Shown: positions 28,946 to 63,997 of the stretch, piece by piece
Layout of the letters: every line of letters begins with the position of its first letter
Position numbering within the stretch: position 1 is the first letter of the stretch
From: Pezicula radicicola
Lineage: Eukaryota; Ascomycota; Leotiomycetes; Helotiales; Dermateaceae
Reading direction: 5' to 3'
Assembly: GCA_003008705.1 (NCBI GenBank)
Contig: PDUO01000108.1
Span: forward strand, 5,062-69,061
Length of the DNA stretch: 64,000 bases
Notes under the pieces: generated by a model
What the model was told of the DNA's origin: nothing
Seen by the model: only the letters and a program-made list of their open reading frames with translations
Databases searched by the model: none
Position numbers and translations under genes: made by a program

Positions 28946-30616
28946 ATGTTTTGGAAGCTTCTTATCTTCTCCTTACTAGCACCCAGAGCCTGTATCAAAG
29001 GGGCAGACAGTGGCTATCGGGCTGCCGCGTATTACGTGGACTGGTCTACTCTCCTTGGCCACTCTCAGCATTTATAGTTCGCCTAATAGTAATAACAGGG
29101 CCACTTACAACAGAAACTTCACCCCACAAGATCTTCCTGCCAAAAAACTTACCCATGTACTCTATGCTTTTGCAAACGTTAACTCTACTACCGGAGAAGT
29201 GTGAGCAATTTCCTCGTCCCTCTCTGACTTCCTCTCGGCTAAGCCTAACATTCATGGACGATAGAGAAAGGCTGATATTGCTATTAGGTACTTAGCAGAT
29301 ACTTGCGCAGATACTGACAAGCGCTTCACTAGAGGCTCTTAGATCGGTGCCGGTAATAACCTCTATGGTTGCCTCAAACAACTCTGTCTTCTCAAACAGC
29401 AGAATCGGAACTTTAAAGTCCTCCTCTCTGTTGGTGGCGCTACTTATTCCTCAAACTTTGCGATCCCGGCAAGTACTTCTTTAGGCCGTTCAATTCACTG
29501 TGGCTTGCTCTGCCGGGCCTTCCTATTACCAGCTGGTGCATCTGGCCGATATGAACGGATATGTTGATTTTTAGAATCTTTTGGCATTTGATTGCGCCGG
29601 GAGCTGGAACTCAGCAACTGCAAATCAAGCAAACCTCTTCTCTTCCGCCAGCGATCCCGCGAGCGCTCCATTTGATACGGAGACCGCGATCAGCTATTAT
29701 ATATCCAAGGGTATCGAACTAAGTAAGATCGTACTTAATATGCCCATTTATGGTCGATCTTTTGAGGCTACCCGTGGTCTCGGGAAGTCATTTAATGGCG
29801 TTGGCACAGGCACTTAGGAGGCAGGCGTTTATGACTTCAAAGCATTGCCACTCAGTGGGGCAATAGAGGTTACTAACAATGCAACGGGATCGAGCTATAG
29901 CTACGATGTTGTGACAGAGGAACTGATCAGCTACGACAATGTCATAGTGGCAAAGCAGAAGGCAGCTTGGATTCGGCAGATGGGTTTAGGTGGTGCGATG
30001 TGGTAGGAGATGGAGTAGCTAATAATAGCTTGATTCGGAACGTAGTTGAGGTTCTTGGTGCTGAGGATGGCTCAGGCTTCGAGAGTTCCCTCAACCAACT
30101 GCTCTACCCAGACATTATCTACGATAACCTCCGAGCCGGAATGCCTGCGTCTGGCTCTGGCTCTGTCTCTGTAACAGTGTCGACCTCTTCTTTCAGCGCA
30201 TCCGAATCATGCTCCTCTACTTCCTTATCAACATCTAGCTTGCCTACGGTTCCCTCATCATCCAGCATAGTAGCATCTAGCGAAGCCTCATCGGGCTCTA
30301 CCTCAATTTCGACCTCAACAGAAGCAGAGCCTTGTTCAATGATGGCCACAACAACTTGGTTACCGTCTCCGCTAGTCACAGTAACGTCAGTAAGTACAGA
30401 GACCGGAAGGGTACTATCGCCTTCCACATTTGCTTCGTCTATCGAGCTGCTTCTCTCGTCGCTCCAGATATCCTTAAGGGCTTGTATGCGAATATCACTA
30501 AACCATTGGCTATATTAAAAAATACTACCAACAATGCACTGTCTGGACTTTCATGTCCACAGTTGGCCAGCATTCATGCTAGCCAGTTTGGAAAATACCT
30601 TGGTTACCAGTTCTAG
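28946..30616 (+). pseudogene. GH18 chitinase pseudogene
   Basis: The start at 28946 gives a signal-peptide-like [15 protein letters not shown] and then [14 protein letters not shown]18 features continue: [89 protein letters not shown] and KQKAAWIRQMGLGGAMW. The DxxDxDxE catalytic strand, which should follow the GGATYSSNF block, is missing by deletion. Many stops (HSQHL*, GTGT*EAG, MW*EME) match RIP of Gln or Trp codons. A Ser/Thr-rich C-terminal region follows at about 30140-30440. The protein would have been a secreted chitinase. Confidence 0.88.
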
Positions 30617-34195: not shown

Positions 34196-35064
34196 AGGTC
34201 TGGCAACCGTCAGGACTACTCCTGTAGTTCTTGTTATCATGTAAGTTGTCTCTTAACAACAGCACATGCATCACCTGATCAAATAATTTAGAATATGTAT
34301 GGCAGCCGTCATAATTATAAGGAGTGTAGATTTTTCAATCTCTATTTCAGGAGTATCATAGATGCAGCTCGAATACATCAGCACGGTCATAGGTTCGAGG
34401 TGATAGAAGGTTAAATTTATGAATGGAACGATGTTCGAAGCCTTTTTCCTTCTTTGGTTTTCGTGTTTGTACGCCACTAATAGGAAATCAGGGCCTAGAT
34501 TAATTAACAATAATTGTCCGCATACTATTAGTGTTGGTTCTAGCATAAGTTACTTTGTAGGCTTGAGTGCGATCACGTGTATAAACGTTTGCGTACATCA
34601 GGTTGTTTGTTTGGCAACATGGCCCTGCCCTAAATTGCTAAAGTTTCGACGAAAACGACGCCATGGTTCGAGGGGGCTGTACAACCAGGTAGATTGCGGC
34701 TTCTAGTGACTAGAAGTCATCAACTAGCCGGTTTAGTCATAGCCACTCAAAAGTGCATCGCGACTACCGCTATAATGATTGGCGCTAACTGTTAACGGCT
34801 GTAGCAGTAAGGCTAGCGGTGATATTGCAAAGGCATAAAATAGGAGAGGTTGTCTTTATTGAAAGAAAATATTGGAATCCCTTTGTACAAGTAAGCGCCT
34901 TGACTCGGCCTTTCCATCAACCTCACAGTGAACCCTCTGGCTGCCTACACAGTTGCATGACCAGAGACAATATTGTCTGCCATGGACCATGTCTCGCCAA
35001 ATTATGTGGTGAGAATGTTATTTTAACTTGTTAAGTTTTGCGCTTACAAGTCTGGTTGATTAGA
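34196..35064. other. Intergenic
   Basis: No supported gene. Short frames at 34419-34706 and 34819-35034 lack motifs. Confidence 0.4.
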
Positions 35065-36434
35065 ATCCGCCCAGTCGTGGACCGCATATATTAATAGCCA
35101 TCTATACATGGGCTGCTTTATCATCTATTGTAGTAATCTTTCGGCTATATACTAGAATCAAAATCAGTAAATACAAGGGTTCGGATGACTGGTGGGTAGC
35201 TGCCGCGTGGGTAAGGAAGATATTACACCACTTCCTAAGATAATAATGGTAAAGCTTAGCAGTTGTTTGTCTTTAGATCGTTTCCCTCATTGAGGAAGGC
35301 CTTGGCATCGCTTGTGAGTACTTCTAGTGTGTGTTTTTAAAGGTTTAAGTAGACTTACCTCTTAGCAAGGCGTTTATTTTGGTAACGGGAGACACATCTA
35401 CGATATTGAACCAGACAATGCTGTTCGCATTGTCAAGGTATGTCTTGGTCCACTAGATCTAGGAATTTATTACTAATATGTACTGTCGCAGATAATCTGG
35501 ATAATGCAAATCGTCTATCCAGTGGCCCTTGGACTTGTTAAAATCTCAATACTCCTCTTTTATTTACGGCTCTTCCCCTCTGACAACTTCCGGAGATTGC
35601 TTTATGGGACTATCGCATTTATCGGTTCTATGACTATTGCAGTTTCCATCTCAATGCTCCTCCAATGCCTCCCCATACATTTCGTCTGGGCTATGCCGAG
35701 CATAGGTGCGAGCCACTGCATAAACACATATGCTCTATTACTTACATCGGCATCTCTGAATTTGATAACCGATATCGCGGTTCTTTGTATGCCTGTGAAG
35801 TATATCTGGTGTATGAAACCTGTGACACAATCTTAGTCGCTTCTAGACTTGATGGCTAATGAGGAGCCCTTGTGTAGCTATGTTATTATCGAAAAAAAAG
35901 AAAGTTCAGACGATAGCTCTTCTCTCCCTGGGATCTATGTAAGTTAATAACGTAGCGTAACATCTGTCAATGTTTCTTAACTAACTTCTATAAAGTGCCT
36001 GCATTGCATCGGCTGTTTGTATTTCCACGTTAAATACATTAAAGTCAAGCCTTGACCCGTCTTGTAGGTGCATTATCTAGATGATCGAGTTTATATCTGT
36101 TCTTAGGCTAGAATTTCGCTCTATTTCTTGTTATCCTACAAGGAGATTTACTAAATTCAGTCTTATACTAGGGGATAGTACTGGCATTTCTATATGGTCT
36201 TCGGTCGAACTCGATTTAATTATTATAACGGCTTCTCTCCCTGCCATGAAGCCCCTTTTTACGAAATTCTTTCAGAGATTTAGAGTGCGGAATGGGGACC
36301 CTGCCCCTGCCCCATGGCCTAACCCGGTTGATAGCACAGATAGAACATTATTAGATCACTCTAGTGTAGGTGGCGGCAGTGCTTCCGTTTGCCCATTCTT
36401 TCCTTTACCCTCCCCTCGGTCAAGGCAAGGTTGA
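35065..36434 (+). pseudogene. Fungal rhodopsin-like (PTH11/SAT4-type) membrane protein relic
   Basis: Segments on the plus strand match the seven-helix fungal rhodopsin-domain family: AIYTWAALSSIVVIFRLYTR with KYKGSDDWWVAAAW, YFGNGRHIYDIEP, KIIWIMQIVYPVALGLVKIS followed by ILLFYLRLFPSDNFRRLLY, LLQCLPIHFVW, DIAVLCMPVKYIW, and late SSVELDLIIITASLPAMKPL. Introns with GT-AG ends can be seen near 35213 and 35438. No start codon fits upstream, a TAG at 35834 replaces a likely Gln, and the frame breaks again by 35945 and 36060. These proteins are plasma-membrane receptors or sensors of unknown ligand. This copy appears inactive. Confidence 0.7.
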
Positions 36435-52590: not shown

Positions 52591-54456
52591 CTAGTACACT
52601 GGAACCTTGAACGCAGGGAAGGTGTAGGTCCAGCTGTCAATAGAAGCCGTATCGTTGACGCATTCGAACGTGCTGCTGCTGTTGCTGGTCCAAAGAGGGC
52701 GAGTCGGCCATTGACAAAGCATTTGAGTCTCGCCTTCATAAGTGCCGGAGGAAACCGTGGCGTTGAGGCGAGTGGGCTGCACACCGTTCTCAACCCCTAG
52801 GTAACGAGGATGTTAGCAATGGCTCGATAAAGATTGTTTTGGGGGGATTGAGACATATTCTCAGGAGAAAGTCATGAAACTTTCTAGAATGGGAAAGGGA
52901 TTTCTCCTCTAGCACTTACATTCAATCATAATCGCCATGTTGTCCTCTGGGTATGGGCCGGGCTGGAGAGAGTTCGTCCCACAATGGGCTGCGCCAGGGA
53001 TCAGGTAAAACTGGTACCAGTCACTGAGCGCCTCGAGACTCGCATCTGACTGGTTGCCGTACATAATGGAAATAACCGACTGCCAGTAGTGTACCGATGA
53101 GGCGGAAGGAATGCTAGGGTCAGATTCTCCGTGGTAGTGCAACAATTTGCCCCCAGAAGATTGGAAAGGAGTGAGATCTGGCAGGGTAGTTTGCAAGCTG
53201 TCCAAATATCTAACCATACCAATGTCCATCCACTCAACCAGAGTGTCATATGTAACGTTGTTAAGGTCAGAGAGATTGTCGAGATCTACCAACTCAATGA
53301 ATTTGGTGACATACTCGCCGCCAGTAGACGGGATGCTGAGTTCCCATGAGTCAGTGTCCGAATTGTACTCAGTGGCCGCATCTCCTAGCTCAGAGGCAAT
53401 CTGCCATGAGAGGTATGCTCGATCGCCATTGGACTTATGAAGACCGTCGTAGATGGCTTGCGCAACAGCGACTCCTTCAGCACTAACAGTTCCGTTTTGA
53501 GCTGGCTGGTAGCTTGTCGTACTACCCTCTGCACGTTTACTGAAGCCGAAACCAAGAGAAGTACTATTCTCGGCCGCGCAGTAATACGACTCGCCAATAA
53601 TCGAGCTCAAGTTGAAGTTGAGCATGCAAAGATCGGTTCGGGATACGACGCCATCTGTTCTTCCGTCGAGAGGGTCGCAAGCAGTAATAGTGGCATTTAC
53701 AATCTTGTCCAGTTCACAGGGTGGCGGGTAGTAGTCGAGAGTCTGCTCCACCATGGACGAAAACACATGGTGGACTTGTTGTTGCGCGAAACGGAAGGCT
53801 GGAGCACCTGCGATCACACCATCGTACTCCTCACCCCAACGCTGCACTTGACTCATACCCTCTCGTCCACCATCAGAGCATCCCTCAAAATAAGTGTAAA
53901 TCTTCGTATCGGTAGACAAGCCGTAGAAACTGTTTGTAATCGCTTTCCCAACAAGAGTCATCTCACCAAGTGCCTGATATGAAAACATATACGTAGCATC
54001 CCAGTTAATAGTCCCATTTCCATATAGAACCACCTCATCATAACTATAGTCGAAGGCGTCGTAGCCTGCAGAGGTAGCACCACTAACAGCGCCATATGCG
54101 AGGCCTCCAGTCGCGTCGCTCGAGAGAGAGAAGCCTCCTCCACCGCCAACATAGAAACGATTTTCGAAGTCGGAGGGGCTTGGGAAAGCATATTTGATGA
54201 CCACGCTGTTGTCCGTACCGGTATGCGTATAGGTGACTGTCACGTTGCAGTAGGTGTAGGTCGTAGTGCTGCCCTGGCCAGAAGTTGCGTTGTAGACGGC
54301 GCTCGCTGTCACGGCCGATGGGATTAAATCAATACCAAGCAAGGTGCCGTTGGACGGCAGGGCAGCTTGGACATTGGATACTGTGCATACATCAGCCAAG
54401 GAAGCGGCGTTCGCTGTTGCCACCAGAGCAGCAAGAGCTGCGCGTGTTTGACGCAT
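52591..54456 (-). CDS. Tannase / feruloyl esterase, 580 aa
   Basis: Exons 54456-52920 and 52796-52591 (1743 nt). Start MRQTRAALAALVATANAASL, a signal peptide; an upstream in-frame ATG at 54537 is less likely. Family landmarks are FYVGGGGGFSLSSDATGGLA, the nucleophile in YFEGCSDGGREGMSQVQRW (Cys-Ser), the acid Asp in HYHGESDPSIPSASSVHYW, and the paired His-Cys in LIPGAAHCGTNSLQPGPYP. This is the CS-D-HC arrangement typical of fungal tannases and feruloyl esterase B. The intron restores IEW|VENGVQPTRLNATV. The secreted enzyme cleaves gallate or hydroxycinnamate esters of plant material. A MITE begins about 375 bp upstream. Confidence 0.93.
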
Positions 54457-54830
54457 TGGAACGAGTGCAAGAAAGGAGTGTGTCTTTTGGTAGAAGTACA
54501 AGAAACGAGTGTTTGGCTTGGTGAATTTCAAGACCAATGACCAAGAGTTCCGACTTGAAGCTTTACTTACCCAGATTATATATCGTAGCTGCCACTACCA
54601 AAGCTGCTCAAGATGCAACCCAGCCACGAACGTCGTCACCCAGTTGCGCAGCACAGTACCGTACTTACAGCATATTACTCTCCCCTGAAGGTGGAGAGTA
54701 TTTGTGGTAGGGAAAGAAGGAGTGGCTACAAGCCTCGTCAGAGAGGGCATACGAAGGTAGTAGATTAAGATCATCATCATAAAAGAGAACGAGGGCTCCG
54801 GAACTGCTCCGTGAATTAAAGTAGCACTTA

Positions 54831-56491: not shown

Positions 56492-57131
56492 ATGAGTCTC
56501 CCTCCCGAAATCCGCTTCATCATATGACGACTAAGTCTTTCACCCCGCGTCGTCGAGGTCCTCGCGTCTAACATCTGCATGAGCTTCTATTCGCAAGCCG
56601 CACTTCCAGTTGCGCTGCACGTATGTCGAGAATCGAGGCAGGCGGTGGAGTCACTCTATCCCAGCTGCTTCGAGTCATTTCTGCAGCCTGAAAGAGTGCG
56701 GTTCAATTTCGATGTCGATATTCTCTATTTAGATATCAGTCAAGAAGAGGAGGGCCTCAATCACTTCTTCGGAATTTTGAAAGAAATTGAGCTGACTCGT
56801 CTGAAATATGTCGCGATTGATGAGGAGTATCTTATGGGCGAGGTGGTCGACCTTCATTTGACGAAAGCGGGGTCTAAAGAGAGCGTTGAAGGCTATGACA
56901 GACCTAAAGGAGATAATTGTTGTTTGTGATATCACGATTATGACACCGAACTATTATTATTCTTTACCAAGGATGCAGATCAAGTTTTATGCTGAGCATA
57001 AAACAGGCGAAGCTGAAGAGAGTTGGCCTGCGGACGTGGAGGAACTTCCTGATGTCCAAGAAGAGTATAAGGATTGGAAACTGTCAAATGTTATCAAGAT
57101 GACGGCTGTATATGGATGGCGGGCAGTATGA
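56492..57131 (+). pseudogene. 2EXR-domain protein pseudogene
   Basis: Begins MSLPPEIRFII then a TGA at the Trp position, RLSLSPRVVEV. This is the fungal 2EXR motif (LPxEIRxxIWxxxL). ALPVALHVCRESRQAVESLY, FNFDVDILYLDIS and RLKYVAIDEE follow. Near 56872 a run of four G makes a one-base frameshift; in the other frame the protein continues ALKAMTDLKEIIVVCDITIM to a stop at 57131. The stop at 56525-56527 (TGG to TGA) fits RIP. The family is of unknown function and often expanded in plant-associated fungi. It is a recent pseudogene. Confidence 0.75.
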
Positions 57132-58047: not shown

Positions 58048-58878
58048 CTATACTTTTGCAGGATAGGAAGAAGGTATATTTCTAGGAGAACGTACGTTTT
58101 GAGGGGGATGTGTATTTGGAGGAGGATATACACTTGTAGATTTCATAGCTACAATTTCCGCTTCTCCTTCTCCTTCTCCTTCTCCTTCTCCTTCTCCTTC
58201 TCCTTCTCCTTCTCCACTACTTAGCAGATTCTCACTCTCATCAGAATTACCATCCATGTCTGAGGAGGATTCACTCTCGTATGGATCAGGCTTTAGCAAC
58301 GAGCAGTAAAACCTCTCATCAAACTCGATATATGAACCACTTGACACTTCAGCCGTCCTGAAGAGGAATTGGTTAGCTGAGGAGAGTTGGCTTGTTAACG
58401 TTGCCGGTAGAATTATTAGCATACATTGTTAGGAACACAGCAGTGAGATGGATACATGCCTTTTTGCCGACCATCGTTACACTATTCCTCACTGCCTCAA
58501 ATAATTCTTCTTGTGCTGCAAGATATTCCACGTCTGGGATCCAAACCTCCTTCTGCACGGGCTCTATACAGGCGTCGTCGTGGAATTCCAATACCGAACA
58601 AGAATCCGAGATGTGTCTCGTATCGTAGGATTGTGGTGACCATGTAGGTGGGTATGAAGCTTGGATGCGGCGAGTTGGAGTTGCAGGTAGAAGTCGTTGT
58701 GGAGGGATTCGACGTCGGGAAGGGGAGATAATCCATCTTGATTAGAGGAGCGCCGGTCGTTGGGGACAAAGTCTGCTTTTTGAAGAAGAGTGGAATCTCG
58801 AGGTGAATTGCTGTTGTGTATTGACGAAAGAGCATTAGTTTGGCTTGAGGCGCAATTTGGACTTGTCCTCTCGGTCAA
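58048..58878 (-). pseudogene. Hypothetical low-complexity gene, frame-disrupted
   Basis: A start at 58878 gives MTERTSPNCASSQTNALSSI and continues to about 58590. The neighbouring frame then gives EFHDDACIEPVQKEVWIPDV and EYLAAQEELFEAVRNSVTMV (58585-58440). A third frame gives FRTAEVSSGSYIEFDERFYC and a Gly-Glu repeat (58360-58150). Each looks protein-like and together they could be one gene, but I find no clean splice between the first two. No family recognised. The (Gly-Glu)n stretch comes from a hexanucleotide repeat. Confidence 0.35.
58159..58215. repeat. Hexanucleotide microsatellite (TTCTCC)n
   Basis: About nine copies of TTCTCC in tandem. On the minus strand this encodes Gly-Glu repeats in the hypothetical frame that spans it. 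Confidence 0.9.
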
Positions 58879-59160
58879 AGGGCGGTGTCAGAATTAGCGC
58901 TTACAAATGGGGCTTGGGCACTGGAACATTCGGAAAGTCTATTAGTCTTATATGTGGTGTGGCAACCCCACATCTGAATAGCTTCTTCAATTCAAACAGT
59001 TCAGTCAATTACTCCTGACAGGCGGTGGCGTTGCGTATGCACATGGTGTCGGTGTTGGTATCGGTGCTAGTGAGCATCGTTCGATACCGATCCCAAGCCA
59101 TTGAATGGGACAGTAAATTGGACATTGATATCAAAGATAGTGACGACATTTGGGTTGTTG

Positions 59161-59250
59161 CTGTCGACATTTGAGTCGCTGTCGATATTTGAGTCGCTGT
59201 CGATATTTGAGTCGCTGTCGATATTTGAGTCGCTGTCGATATTTGAGTCG
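59161..59250. repeat. 18-bp tandem repeat, five copies
   Basis: Units of CTGTCGATATTTGAGTCG at 59161, 59179, 59197, 59215 and 59233, the first with one change (CGACAT), and a partial sixth. On the minus strand one frame encodes repeated DSDSNI (frame 59333-59067), a possible but unsupported short protein. All copies are nearly identical, so the array is recent. Confidence 0.9.
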
Positions 59251-59399
59251 CTGTCGTTATATGGCCTGTGCTCAATACACGCTTCACCCAAAGCGATATC
59301 ATAGAGGATGTTTGTGGATGCGAAGCAAGCCATCTGCCGCCTTTCTGTTGTTGTTGATGGTGGTGGTGATTGTGTTGTTGGTTAACATTCTTTTGCATT

Positions 59400-60922
59400 G
59401 TGTTATATCGTATTGTTATTGTTATGGTTAATAACAGAGTATAACGCTTTTAGGTTTAACTTAGTATTCATCCTTAATAGGCACGCACGGTTATAAAGTA
59501 GAGCTATAAACTAGACCCACCTAAGGCTCGCGTGTCGCATAAGGCAAATATAACTTAGAGTACTTTGTGCCTTGTGATTATAGTATCCCTTGCTCCGTCT
59601 TTTTGTAGGTGGTCGGTCATTGCTTACGTGTTCTTAAAAGGTTCCAAATGCCACTCCGCTCGGACCAATTAGAAGACAGGGTTATTGTAGGTCGTTAGAG
59701 GATGGGTTTAATAATTTTTTGGCGGGGGAAGGCCAGCTTTAACTTGGCCTCCCAATCCAAGCCGAACTAACGCCGTCTGTGGTCACTTCTCAGGCCGACG
59801 CAAAACTTCTTATCACTAACAGCAACCACATCCTCACTACTAGGAAGGCCATTTGGAACTCGTATATCCGACTACTCGTCCAGGAATGCTCTTGCTCTAA
59901 TCATGCCCTATTTGGTAGTACTAGCCTCAAATATCATGGATTCAACTCCCAACTAAAAGCTAGGTCTGCTTTTTATGTAGTATTCATTAACTGCACTACC
60001 GGTTCCACTGGAAATATAAAGTCGGTTATTACGCCTTATAGACATTTTATCGCGGCTTTAGAAGCAACTTTGCTTACTAAAAACTTAAATATAAGCTAAC
60101 CTACTAATAGTACTAATAATATAATACTAGACTAAATAATCTATTTTTTAATTTACTAATATATTTTAATTAACTAAAAAATAATTAATTTAGACCAATT
60201 ATTTCTTTCGCTGGAAACCCCTGACAGTCTACTCCACCAGCCCACTGTATAACATTTATTTGGGGGAGAGAGTATGACTGAAGTTCGGCAGTTCTCAAGT
60301 CAACATTTAGTAGGTTCAATCCTCACTTCTTCAGGAGTCGTCCAAGCCCAGAAGATCACTCGGTTGATGGTAAGACCTCAGTCAGCATACGTGCCACAGC
60401 CTTACAACTCTTTTCCCAGATCCCTGTTCCGCAACTTAAGTTTTTTGAAAGTATTACGGAGGCACAGCACATAAAGAGGGGGTATACGCTAGCATGGGGC
60501 CTGTGGCAAGCGAGACAAGCGAAGAACTTCTTACCTGTTAGGGTATTACTTTGAACAAGTTTTCGCTACAAGTAGTTAAGACGATATCGCTTCTAGGGTA
60601 GCTCATGCTAGCTTATATCCCTTCTTTATGTGCTGTACCTCCGTAGTCTGCAGACACGGAAGATCGAAAGTGCATGAATATCAAGTGTTCGGATTGGCAA
60701 GCTCGTTTGCAGAACAACTCAACTTATTTATGACGTTGTGATTTGCTTTAGGATACAGCTTCAACTTTCTGTAGTTGTCGAGAGCTCTCACGGACTTTAA
60801 TCAATACAGGGAATGAGAGCAGTCTTCTAAGAATATTCTGTACTTGTGGCAGGTGTTTGGTGTAGTCAGCTGGCCAAAACCGGCCGTAATTCCCCATACA
60901 ACAAATCCTCTCGACCCAACCA
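59400..60922. other. Intergenic
   Basis: Open frames at 59779-60099 and 60274-60474 (plus) carry no known motif. 60100-60200 is AT-rich. The right end is the promoter side of the first UstYa gene. Confidence 0.4.
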
Positions 60923-61948
60923 TTGGCGACCCAGTTCTATGCACCAATGTTGTCTACTCCAGCAATGAAGAAATGGAAAAGCCTTCTAAAATCTTTAAAC
61001 ACAAAGCACCAACAGGTTGAGGAGGATGAGCTCTTGGGACCCGACGTACTAGCTAGGTCAAAGGATTATGAGAACCACAAAAATTCCCTTCGACGATATA
61101 AAGTAGCTTTTTACAGCCTTTTGGTACTCAATGTTCTGGCAATTATTATTGGCACTGGATCTTTCAAGCACTTTTCCACCTCAGGTCAAAGCCAGCAAAT
61201 GTTGAAGTCATTTTTCCCAGAAAGTAAATTCAATTCTTTAGTAGCAAGTCAAGTGAGAGACGCTGATTTCAACCTAACAGTTCCCAAAAAAGACGTCATA
61301 TTTGAACGAGACGACAGCTTCGGCAATTCTACACCATCGGATTCATATTATACTCCATGGGATGATTTGATGCCAGGTAAGTATCACACTTCAACTATAT
61401 CTTGAGTGGAACATATCCTGACAATAGACAGAGGGTAGAGGGCTCGTCATCGTCGAGGACCCGGAGGTGTATGGGCTGGAAGGTGGATACCCTCTTACTC
61501 CTACATCTTCATCCAGACGAGAGTTGTATGATACATCAGTGTTTCATCAATTGAATTGTCTGGTAAGTATTCCCTGCCAGCAATCTCATTCAAATCGTAA
61601 CTCCACGCAAAACTCATATAATGTCTCCAAATCATGTAGGGCACTCTAAAAGCTCACTTCCGACCAAATGAAACGGCATTTCCTCCTGAGAGTGACGCAG
61701 TGAGGGCACATCATAATCACTGCTTTGACTATTTGCGGCAGTCGATAATGTGTGCTGGAGATATGACGCTTGAGCATGCGGTTGAGATCAATGGTGTCCT
61801 CATTCCAAGTACTGATGGTTGGGGCATTCAACATGAATGTATGGATTGGAGTTCTATCTTTGATGCTGTTATGGAACATCGGCCGGAGAATGGTATCAAT
61901 TCAAAACGGAGAGTATATGATAGACGAGGTTATGATACCTGGGTATGA
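60923..61948 (+). CDS. UstYa-family oxidase-like protein (DUF3328), 297 aa
   Basis: Exons 60923-61376, 61432-61562 and 61640-61948 (894 nt). A single membrane segment (VAFYSLLVLNVLAIIIG) follows a cytoplasmic head. The soluble part has RGLVIVEDPEVYGLEGG, the first motif FHQLNCLGTLKAHF and the second HHNHCFDYLRQSIMCAGDMT, and ends STDGWGIQHECMDWSSIFDA. In the ustiloxin and victorin pathways UstYa-type proteins form macrocyclic bonds in peptide side chains, through a pair of HxxHC motifs. Here the first reads HQLNC, with Asn in place of the second His, while the second is complete. It converges on a second UstYa gene (155 bp between ends). Confidence 0.9.
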
Positions 61949-62103
61949 GACCCGAGTTCACACACTCATAAAACATAGCACTTGTGTTGTGTCACTCACG
62001 TGAGATGAATTGAGCATTTCTACATCATTTACAGTATTTTGACACCACAGGCATGGGAAGATACTGAGCTTTATTTCTCTTCTCCTGATAAAAATTTGCT
62101 TCC

Positions 62104-63110
62104 TTATCCTTCGATGTATCTATCATCATTAGCCCTCCTCTCCGTCACCCAATCACTTAAAGCATTCCAATTGTTGCAAACATGAGTGTTGTTCCAGCCA
62201 TCAGTAGACAATCTTCCCATTGCCTTACGTTTCAGCGTCTCCAGTGTCCCGTCTGCATTACACATGATACTCTGGCGTAAATACTCAAAGCAATGACTGA
62301 GGTGTTCTTCTTCCGTTTGGATCTCAATATCATCCCGCTCGTGATGATGTTGGCCGCTAGTCGTAGGGTTGCCATCAGTGGCAGCAAAGTATCCCTGTCG
62401 AATCATGAACTACACCGATGGTAATTAGCTCTTACTCCGCCTTCCAATTGGCTTTCTATTGCTTACTTACAAGGCAATGAAGTTGATGAAATGCAGCGGT
62501 GCTGTACACGGGAGATTGCGCGGACGAATTAAGCTCAAGCCTTATGAATCCTCTTCCTTCTATCATTACTCGACTTAGGCTTTATGTACTTCAACAATCC
62601 AAAGCCAGGAGAACTCACTTGGAACCAACTCTCTCCAGGCTTGATCTGTCTCATTCGATGAGGGTCCGTAAAATCGATTGTCTTTCTCAAAGACAACCAG
62701 CTGATGTGTGACTATCATTTTATATTAGCTCTACTGTATTCATGATTGGAATAGAAGGAGCACATACATGCAGGAGCCTGCCTTGTTTTAGCAATAAACT
62801 GTTCATTGCCACCACCATACACAGAGAATATGCCGCTTTCAGTCTTCGTTACATGACGCAGTTGATAGAATAAAACTAAAATGGTAACAAGCAAGCAGAC
62901 TGAAAAAAGCGTCAGGAGCGTGATAATGAATAGCAACTTTTTGGTATCGCAGTTCAGGCGTTCTCCAAGCTGTTTCTGGTCCACCTCTCTGTCGTTTGCA
63001 TTGCATCCACCTGGGTCTCCTTCGTCATAATACTCGACATCTACTTCAGAATCGTGGATACGTATATAAGCTGGCTTGCTGTTAGCTTTTTTCTGGAACA
63101 TGATTAACAA
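62104..63110 (-). CDS. UstYa-family oxidase-like protein (DUF3328), 276 aa
   Basis: Exons 63110-62768, 62711-62619, 62559-62471 and 62409-62104 (831 nt). The N-terminal head is acidic (HDSEVDVEYYDEGD) and followed by a membrane helix (LLFIITLLTLFSVCLLVTIL). Then FTHQLVVFEKDNRFYGPSSN, a WRELVPKGRGFIRLE segment, motif one AAFHQLHCL and motif two HLSHCFEYLRQSIMCNADGT, ending STDGWNNTHVCNNW. Both HxxHC motifs are intact. It probably oxidises a peptide inside the secretory pathway. It lies 719 bp from the precursor gene on the same strand, and its partner faces it tail to tail. Confidence 0.92.
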
Positions 63111-63829
63111 AGGAGTAGCCGAATGATCACTCGTGTCCCCGAAGAATGAAGATTATATCTGGAGTAGTATTTCCGGATCGTTCGCCAGCATTGAGTTTTC
63201 GTTGTTATGACTTTTTGAATCGTGTGACCATTTATTAGTCAGGCTTTGCCAAGAAGTGTTATCTATATAACACGTATATAATATTAGTAGGTATGCTATA
63301 CGGAGTACCTAGGCAAAGCTAAATACGGCAATGTTTAAGTTTACCTGGGTCGGCGGCTAGATGCAGATGCACGTACGCGGCGTGGTACGACACGGTACGA
63401 AGAGTTGGGGATACAAGGAATGGAAGAACTTTATACAGGGTGTGTTTTGCAGGGCGGGGTAACGGGAGATGTTTGTTTTATCGAAGGTAGGTCAATTGTA
63501 ATCCTAGGTTTCCTCACGAGTTTTGGAAAGGCAGTGTTAAAGAGCACAAACTGGTGTTCAATTGGCTAAGGATTTTGTTTTTGAAACTTTGGTAACGAAT
63601 GTTGGCCAAGAATGTAAGCAAGTAAGCAATTGAGAAATGTGCCTGAGTATAGCGAACGAATCCCCTGAAATCCAAAATTCTTCCTCATCAACGGAACTGC
63701 ATCCCCAGGAACGAAAATCAACGCCTGCAATAAAGTCAATTGGCAGTTTCTCTTCAGCGAACCCGTTGTATTTTGGATTTGAAGATCACTTACTTCCAAA
63801 GCTGACTAGGAGTTTTCGTCAAGCGCTAA
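63111..63829. other. Spacer between UstYa gene and precursor gene
   Basis: Contains the promoter of the second UstYa gene and the 3' side of the precursor gene. A minus frame at 63799-63566 has no recognisable motif and no copy of the core repeat. Confidence 0.45.
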
Positions 63830-63997
63830 TTACTTTGTCTTGTCGGCTGTGACAGTGCCGAAATCGTCGGCCCAAGCCTTTGCCTCTCTCTTGTCGGTAA
63901 CAGTGCCGAAATCGTCGGCCCACGCAGCAGGCGCACCGAGTACAGTGCCCGTCATGAGGCACATGAGTGGTACGAGAGCAACGTTAATAACCTTCAT
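63830..63997 (-). CDS. Secreted repeat precursor peptide, putative RiPP precursor (55 aa)
   Basis: A 56-codon intronless frame from ATG at 63997 to TAA at 63830-63832. MKVINVALVPLMCLMTGTVL then GAPA is a typical signal peptide. The rest is two copies of a 16-residue unit: AWADDFGTVTDKREAK, then AWADDFGTVT ending ADKTK. The DNA repeats with a 48-bp period. A Lys-Arg site followed by Glu-Ala separates the copies, as in kexin (Kex2)-processed precursors. The two UstYa genes next to it match the layout of dikaritin-type RiPP clusters (ustiloxin, asperipin, phomopsin, victorin). The core WADDFGTVT is not one I know. Alternative: an alpha-pheromone-like peptide, since KR-E-A spacers also occur there; the core lacks the usual Cys and Gly-Gln of those pheromones. 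Confidence 0.85.
   Translation of the reverse strand: MKVINVALVPLMCLMTGTVLGAPAAWADDFGTVTDKREAKAWADDFGTVTADKTK

What the first reader, a model, noticed from the sequence alone, without database searches (positions are those of the whole stretch)
60923..63997. Candidate new dikaritin-type RiPP cluster: two UstYa genes and a kexin-site precursor
The 55-aa precursor has a signal peptide and two copies of an AWADDFGTVT unit separated by a DKREAK spacer with a Lys-Arg kexin site. It lies beside two UstYa/DUF3328 genes. In known fungal pathways (ustiloxin, phomopsin, asperipin, victorin) this combination makes side-chain cyclised peptides. The core is rich in Asp with one Trp and one Phe and lacks Tyr, so a Trp- or Phe-linked ring would be unusual. 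Only two core copies are present, which is few.
Basis: partly seen in the sequence, partly recalled or inferred. Interest (0 to 1): 0.93.

Follow-up and report, generated by a model that had tools for sequence, protein, structure and literature searches.

The report
Small fungal dikaritin-type peptide cluster
A fungus carries a tiny secreted peptide precursor with two identical copies of a ten-residue core, set among three genes for copper-type oxidases that in known fungi tie such peptides into rings: a believable but otherwise ordinary new member of a known class of fungal peptide natural products.

Summary
A 55-aa ORF at 63830-63997 (-) has a hydrophobic N-terminus, two identical AWADDFGTVT cores and one Lys-Arg between them. 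U1 and U2 beside it match Pfam UstYa. Past the window end lies a third UstYa gene (65296-66353, window numbering), so the locus reads UstYa - UstYa - precursor - UstYa in 5.4 kb, on an 82-kb contig without tyrosinase or S41 peptidase matches. This fits the published anatomy of dikaritin clusters, except that a 2020 survey counted only precursors with three or more repeats. The Tyr-free Trp/Phe core is a minority type, not an exception: 34% of UstYa-linked repeats lack Tyr and 20.5% contain Trp. U1 has HQLNC instead of HxxHC, losing a predicted copper ligand; of 171 aligned rows only U1 shows this change. Mating-type matches lie on other contigs. No precursor homologue was found, and conserved co-occurrence could not be shown. 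The peptide's chemistry (ring, Trp or Phe link) is untested. Contig C17 of the same genome encodes a Tyr-core, intron-split precursor, with UstYa and tyrosinase matches on that contig. Verdict: new member of a known kind; cluster claim strong, chemistry open.

The parts
63830..63997 (-). Precursor gene (Kex2-processed repeat protein), 55 aa, no intron, stop codon included. (The third UstYa gene, U3, lies beyond the window at L002 1357-2414 and so cannot be listed here.)
   Evidence: Direct reading; one match in the genome; no Pfam or NCBIfam match at E <= 1
63926..63997 (-). Hydrophobic N-terminus, residues 1-24, likely signal peptide ending APA|A
   Evidence: Sequence, and the hydropathy rule of the scan; no signal-peptide program run
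63896..63925 (-). Core copy 1, AWADDFGTVT
63878..63895 (-). Spacer DKREAK with the Lys-Arg Kex2 site (KR codons 63887-63892)
63848..63877 (-). Core copy 2, AWADDFGTVT; three synonymous differences from copy 1; followed by ADKTK and stop
62104..63101 (-). U2, UstYa/DUF3328 gene, 273 aa, exons 63101-62768, 62711-62619, 62559-62471, 62409-62104; motifs HQLHC and HLSHC
   Evidence: Gene model (other acceptor choices change a few residues); Pfam PF11807 E 4e-34
60947..61948 (+). U1, UstYa/DUF3328 gene, 289 aa, exons 60947-61376, 61432-61562, 61640-61948; motifs HQLNC (altered) and HHNHC
   Evidence: Gene model; Pfam PF11807 E 4.7e-23; motif comparison
61545..61559 (+). Altered first motif of U1, HQLNC (Asn codon 61554-61556); 162 of 171 aligned rows keep both motifs intact
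   Evidence: position read

Best explanation
This is a small dikaritin-type RiPP gene cluster. Shown: a short precursor ORF with a hydrophobic N-terminus, two identical cores and one Lys-Arg site, among three genes of the UstYa/DUF3328 family, each with a hydrophobic stretch near its N-terminus (seen by eye). Inferred from the family: the precursor enters the ER; the UstYa proteins, anchored with the catalytic domain in the secretory lumen, use a dicopper site and O2 to oxidise core side chains, most likely tying Trp or Phe to another core residue; Kex2 cuts after Lys-Arg, exopeptidases trim Glu-Ala(-Lys) and the basic C-terminal ends, and a modified peptide of about 9-12 residues built on AWADDFGTVT is secreted. 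U2 and U3 are the likely catalysts. U1, lacking one predicted copper ligand but keeping its other motif residues, is most likely a partner subunit or an enzyme of reduced or altered activity.
For: Precursor anatomy and its rarity; synonymous-only divergence between cores; all three neighbours are PF11807 above cut-off; the third lies just beyond the window. UstYa genes are enriched beside such precursors: 1758 of 7878 in a survey of 1461 strains, with the count highest at the next gene (PMC7329392 section 7). The Venturia inaequalis working definition (signal peptide, one or more repeats of at least 10 residues split by kexin sites, close to a DUF3328 gene; PMC9632046 passage) is met. The DUF3328 protein CctR is copper- and O2-dependent, and alanine mutants of its motif lose activity (PMC12435403 passages). 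The same genome holds a second, Tyr-core Kex2-type precursor on contig C17, which also carries UstYa and tyrosinase matches.
Against: Only two cores, below the three-repeat threshold of the survey and below the average of about five repeats given in PMC10512285 (passage). No Tyr in the core, whereas 65.6% of UstYa-linked repeats contain Tyr; Trp is not enriched next to UstYa genes (20.5% against 24.5%). No precursor homologue and no conserved gene neighbourhood found. No shared promoter word among the four genes. U1 has lost one motif His. No expression or mass data.
Confidence: 0.8

Rival explanations
1. A secreted, unmodified Kex2-processed signalling or pheromone-like peptide that merely sits near UstYa genes.
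For: About 78% (6120 of 7878) of surveyed Kex2-repeat proteins have no UstYa gene among the 15 nearest genes (PMC7329392 section 7); the EA after the Lys-Arg resembles the Ste13 trimming site of yeast alpha-factor (recalled).
Against: Three UstYa genes lie on both sides of the precursor within 5.4 kb; mating-factor genes, with three exceptions, have no UstYa neighbours (abstract of PMC7329392); both MATalpha matches are on other contigs; the core has no Cys and so no WC..G..C pheromone pattern (pattern recalled).
Confidence: 0.08
2. A decaying, no longer working cluster: two leftover repeats, one UstYa with an altered motif, next to an AT-rich RIP-like block and gene fragments.
For: U1 HQLNC; AT-rich block at 16-22% GC from about 71 kb to the contig end, with a (CpA+TpG)/(ApC+GpT) ratio of 0.49 in the first 1-kb bin and 0.00-0.01 after it; the 1-kb bins at 60, 63 (the precursor's bin) and 64 kb are marginally RIP-like by the thresholds I used (TpA/ApT 0.96-1.29, ratio 0.96-1.02). 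Ketoacyl-synthase fragment at 68675-68935.
Against: All three UstYa genes have open frames with GT-AG introns; core copies differ only synonymously; the bins at 61, 62 and 65 kb, which hold most of the UstYa coding, show no RIP signature (TpA/ApT 0.64-0.69), and window 1-56000 as a whole stands at 0.90 and 1.15.
Confidence: 0.09
3. The UstYa genes serve another pathway (for example a lost polyketide or non-ribosomal cluster, as CctR does for cyclochlorotine), and the precursor is unrelated.
For: UstYa proteins also act outside RiPP pathways (PMC12435403 passages); a ketoacyl-synthase fragment lies 2.3 kb right of U3.
Against: The synthase piece is an 87-aa fragment, and no intact synthase was noticed among the ORFs looked at, though PKS and NRPS families were not searched on the contig; the precursor lies between U2 and U3, with U3 divergent from it.
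Confidence: 0.03

Closest known systems
Asperipin-2a cluster (Aspergillus flavus)
   Same: Small cluster (four genes expressed to make it), Kex2 repeat precursor beside a DUF3328 gene; the passages read name no tyrosinase for it (PMC7329392; PMC10512285)
   Different: One UstYa gene there, three here; its core is Tyr-rich with Tyr-ether links (core recalled; links), here Tyr-free; it has a reductase (PMC12048977 passage), none noticed here and none searched for by family
Ustiloxin and phomopsin clusters
   Same: Signal peptide, repeated cores, Kex2 sites, several UstYa genes (2 and 5)
   Different: Tyr-Ile linked YxIx cores, tyrosinase needed, 16 repeats in ustiloxin; here two Tyr-free cores and no tyrosinase match on the contig
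Victorin (Cochliobolus victoriae)
   Same: A ring that uses Phe (Phe-Leu link as stated in PMC9233826); its core is Tyr-free (recalled)
   Different: Different core (recalled), chlorinated and extensively modified
Dikaritin clusters of Venturia inaequalis (nine reported)
   Same: Same defining anatomy, repeats of at least 10 aa and kexin sites close to a DUF3328 gene (PMC9632046 passages)
   Different: No sequence comparison made here; the supplementary sequences were not read

Membership tests
Dikaritins | DUF3328/UstYa protein encoded next to the precursor (class-defining enzyme) | tested here: met
   Three genes, PF11807 E 4.7e-23, 4e-34, 2e-42
Dikaritins | Precursor with signal peptide and repeated cores separated by Kex2 sites | tested here: met
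   Two 10-aa identical cores, one KR, hydrophobic N-terminus; meets the Venturia criterion. Signal peptide by hydropathy only
Dikaritins | Three or more tandem repeats of >=8 aa (operational cut-off of the 2020 survey, not a biological definition) | tested here: not met
   Two repeats only; cut-off in PMC7329392 section 13. Core pattern search of the genome found no further exact copy
Dikaritins | Two HxxHC motifs in the UstYa proteins | tested here: met
   Met by U2 (HQLHC/HLSHC) and U3 (HTLHC/HNSHC); not met by U1 (HQLNC/HHNHC)
Dikaritins | Aromatic (usually Tyr) residue in the core for side-chain linkage | tested here: inconclusive
   No Tyr; Trp and Phe present. 65.6% of UstYa-linked repeats have Tyr, 20.5% Trp
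Dikaritins | Side-chain macrocycle in the product | not testable with these tools
   Needs LC-MS/NMR
Ustiloxin/phomopsin subgroup | YxIx core and cluster tyrosinase | tested here: not met
   Core has no Tyr; no PF00264 match on contig C15 among 54 genome matches
Ascomycete alpha-type mating pheromone | Cys-bearing WC..G..C core (recalled) | tested here: not met
   Core AWADDFGTVT has no Cys
   Two MATalpha matches, on C20 and C68, none on C15; C15 is only 82 kb long

The most novel reading that the evidence does not exclude
A Tyr-free dikaritin in which UstYa dicopper enzymes link the core Trp (or Phe) to an Asp, Thr or Val side chain, made by a hetero-oligomer of three UstYa proteins of which one (U1, HQLNC) has lost a copper ligand and serves as a non-catalytic or retuned partner subunit. 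That would be a Trp- or Phe-centred ring chemistry and a pseudo-enzyme arrangement within this enzyme family.
Probability: 0.2. Interest if true: 0.65.

Novelty: new member of a known kind. Interest (0 to 1): 0.42.

Why it matters
Very few dikaritins are known as compounds (five were listed in 2022; PMC10512285 passage) against 1758 UstYa-linked precursors in one survey, and that survey could not see precursors with fewer than three repeats. This locus is a compact four-gene test case for what UstYa enzymes do with a Trp/Phe/Asp core that has no Tyr, and for whether a UstYa protein with an altered copper motif works as a partner subunit. It also shows that two-repeat precursors, and (contig C17) precursors with about one repeat per exon, can escape simple scans.

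Tried and rejected
Precursor homologues: 3 candidates, none at E <= 1. Conserved neighbourhood: the 48 U3 hits and the 120 listed of 347 U1/U2 hits share no contig length (compared by eye). Where one species appears in both lists and tags are shown, they are not neighbours (for example Sporothrix curviconia _000753 and _005557). Absence proves little, since 227 hits were not listed and small precursors often go unannotated. More core copies: the degenerate core pattern found the two known copies plus two 1-mismatch hits (C1, C101). About one is expected by chance by my own estimate; no ORF of 40 aa or more listed for the C101 locus carries the core, and the C1 locus was only screened in scripts.

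Pheromone rival by DNA pattern: 12 scattered matches against 4 for the reversed control, no repeated cluster; not decisive. Shared promoter words in upstream regions of 650-700 bases: none of 8 bases in all four, 9 in three or four, or 10 in three.

Kex2 precursors near other UstYa genes: the strict one-exon scan found none besides this one (204,094 bases, overlapping loci counted more than once). A looser scan also listed low-complexity or chance hits (L033, L037, two more frames of the window) and repeats in L032 on C17, which proved to be an intron-split precursor. The tandem-repeat run over 30 sequences (174,349 bases, periods of 24 or more) showed no other array with a Lys/Arg-Arg site. 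These loci are the best 30 of 70 UstYa matches with about 1.5 kb on each side, so this is no census. Solved structures: no PDB chain matches the three-protein profile at E <= 1. An AlphaFold2 model of the best-scoring U1 relative P0049 (45% identical over 196 aa; pLDDT 71.8, pTM 0.62) puts both motifs in helices 149-170 and 192-209; coordinates were not inspected, so the ligand geometry rests on the CctR paper.

Species: not identified; the highest identity among U3 relatives is 57%, so no close relative is in that set. Papers: PMC7329392 abstract, sections 7 and 13 and passages; PMC12435403, PMC12048977, PMC9632046, PMC10512285, PMC12186524, PMC9233826, PMC7099791 passages only; all others search listing only. 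The core letters AWADDFG/WADDFGT occur in no held paper.

Full report
What is there. Reading the window and its frames gives, on the minus strand at 63830-63997, an intron-free 55-residue ORF: a hydrophobic N-terminus of about 24 residues ending APA|A, then AWADDFGTVT, DKREAK, AWADDFGTVT, ADKTK. The two 30-nt core copies lie 48 nt apart and differ at three third-codon positions, all synonymous; three random substitutions would all be synonymous with P about 0.013-0.018. In the window plus the extension L002 it is the only ATG ORF with a repeat of seven or more residues split by KR/RR, and none appeared in 100 Markov shuffles of 64 kb. The protein search of the 61-Mb genome gave no second match, and the core pattern gave only two further hits, each with one mismatch; the one that was read is no precursor.

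The neighbours. U1 (60947-61948, +, 289 aa) and U2 (62104-63101, -, 273 aa) splice with GT-AG introns and match Pfam UstYa (E 4.7e-23 and 4e-34). In it, at 65296-66353 in continued window numbering (L002 1357-2414), lies a third UstYa gene, U3 (+, 262 aa, six exons; motifs HTLHC and HNSHC; E 2e-42). The precursor thus lies between U2 and U3, and U3 is divergent from it. Right of U3 I saw an 87-aa ketoacyl-synthase piece (68675-68935), a rhodopsin-domain ORF (70784-71098), then an AT-rich block from about 71 kb to the contig end with 16-22% GC; the (CpA+TpG)/(ApC+GpT) ratio is 0.49 in its first bin and 0.00-0.01 beyond, as after RIP. The bins at 60, 63 and 64 kb are marginally RIP-like too; those at 61, 62 and 65 kb are not. 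Left of U1, the ORFs 58051-58428 and 59743-60096 gave only weak Pfam matches below cut-off, the ORF 56528-56926 was not tested, and the nearest clear gene found is a tannase at 52912-54594. No tyrosinase or S41 peptidase match of the genome lies on this contig (0 of 54 and 0 of 6). Methyltransferases, transporters, reductases and synthases were not searched by family.

The altered copper motif. In an alignment of U1-U3 with the 168 retrieved relatives, 162 of 171 rows keep both HxxHC motifs. U1 alone has HxxNC in the first motif. One other row has HDC/HSC, two have a changed first His of the second motif, and five lack or misalign residues of the second motif. The 168 are the listed best hits (48, and 120 of 347), so the set is not a fair sample of the family. 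In CctR the four His are predicted to lie in a plane and to hold two coppers at the dimer interface, and alanine mutants of the motif's His and Cys lose all activity (PMC12435403 passages). U1 keeps the other motif residues and two further cysteines shared by U1, U2 and U3 (C225 and C254 in U1 numbering). I infer a partner subunit or altered enzyme; simple decay is not excluded. In the same genome a six-frame motif scan showed one more UstYa-like first motif with a changed second His (FHQLQCL, locus L016), not followed up.

What it most likely does. The anatomy is that of dikaritins: Kex2-cut repeated cores made by the secretory route and oxidised by UstYa enzymes. In a survey of 1461 strains, 1758 of 7878 Kex2-repeat proteins had a UstYa gene among the 15 nearest genes, with the count highest at the very next gene (PMC7329392 section 7). 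That survey asked for three or more repeats (section 13), so a two-repeat precursor would be missed. Of UstYa-linked repeats 65.6% had Tyr and 20.5% Trp, and Trp was no commoner there than in precursors without UstYa neighbours (24.5%): the Tyr-free, Trp-bearing core is a minority type, not an exception. Rings on Phe have precedent (victorin, PMC9233826 passage; asperipin-2a Tyr-O to Phe-C-beta, PMC12186524 passage). A Trp-linked fungal product reported in 2025 (asperigimycins) is recalled only; that name occurs in none of the 19 papers listed.

Comparative evidence. The precursor has no homologue at E <= 1. The best-scoring relatives of U3, U1 and U2 in a BLAST against the retrieved set are 55%, 45% and 36% identical (P0001, P0049, P0051). 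No contig length is shared between the two protein searches. This neither supports nor refutes a conserved cluster, because small precursors are often unannotated and the neighbourhoods could not be read. The mating-locus test was negative: two MATalpha matches, on contigs C20 and C68, though this contig is only 82 kb long.

A control from the same genome. The genome has 70 exon-level UstYa matches at E <= 0.01. Contig C17, which also carries UstYa and tyrosinase matches, encodes a precursor-like series of exons: a hydrophobic MLFWKCLLVVALCGAVTAK start and four DYVGGIDVDKR units, about one per exon (no full gene model was built). It suggests that this fungus also has the more usual Tyr-core type, and shows that one-exon scans miss some precursors.

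Verdict. It is a new member of a known kind. The interesting open points are the ring chemistry of a Tyr-free Trp/Phe/Asp core and the role of a UstYa protein with an altered copper motif; neither can be settled from sequence.

Noticed in passing
G000:C17:27617-28608 (L048, also L032), minus strand: A second Kex2-type precursor with about one DYVGGIDVDKR repeat per short exon (four copies seen), on a contig with UstYa matches (26583, 32091) and tyrosinase matches (29655-30395, 34843-35599): looks like a Tyr-core dikaritin cluster.
   Followed up: partly
L002 4736-4996 (-), window numbering 68675-68935: Fragment of a ketoacyl-synthase domain (PF00109 E 1e-10), apparently a relic, 2.3 kb right of U3.
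   Followed up: partly
window numbering about 71000-76989 (L002/L003): AT-rich block, 16-22% GC, CpA+TpG nearly absent beyond 72 kb, running to the contig end: a strongly RIP-like block beside the cluster.
   Followed up: partly
L016 (G000:C115:179423-182785): Another UstYa-type first motif with a changed second His, FHQLQCL, in a six-frame motif scan; altered copper motifs may recur in this genome.
   Followed up: no
window about 59160-59256 and 58160-58215: Tandem repeat of an 18-nt unit and a CTTCTC-type repeat: low-complexity stretch left of U1.
   Followed up: no
window 35477-35833 and L002 6845-7159: Two fungal rhodopsin-domain ORFs (PF20684) on the same contig, one left and one right of the cluster.
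   Followed up: no
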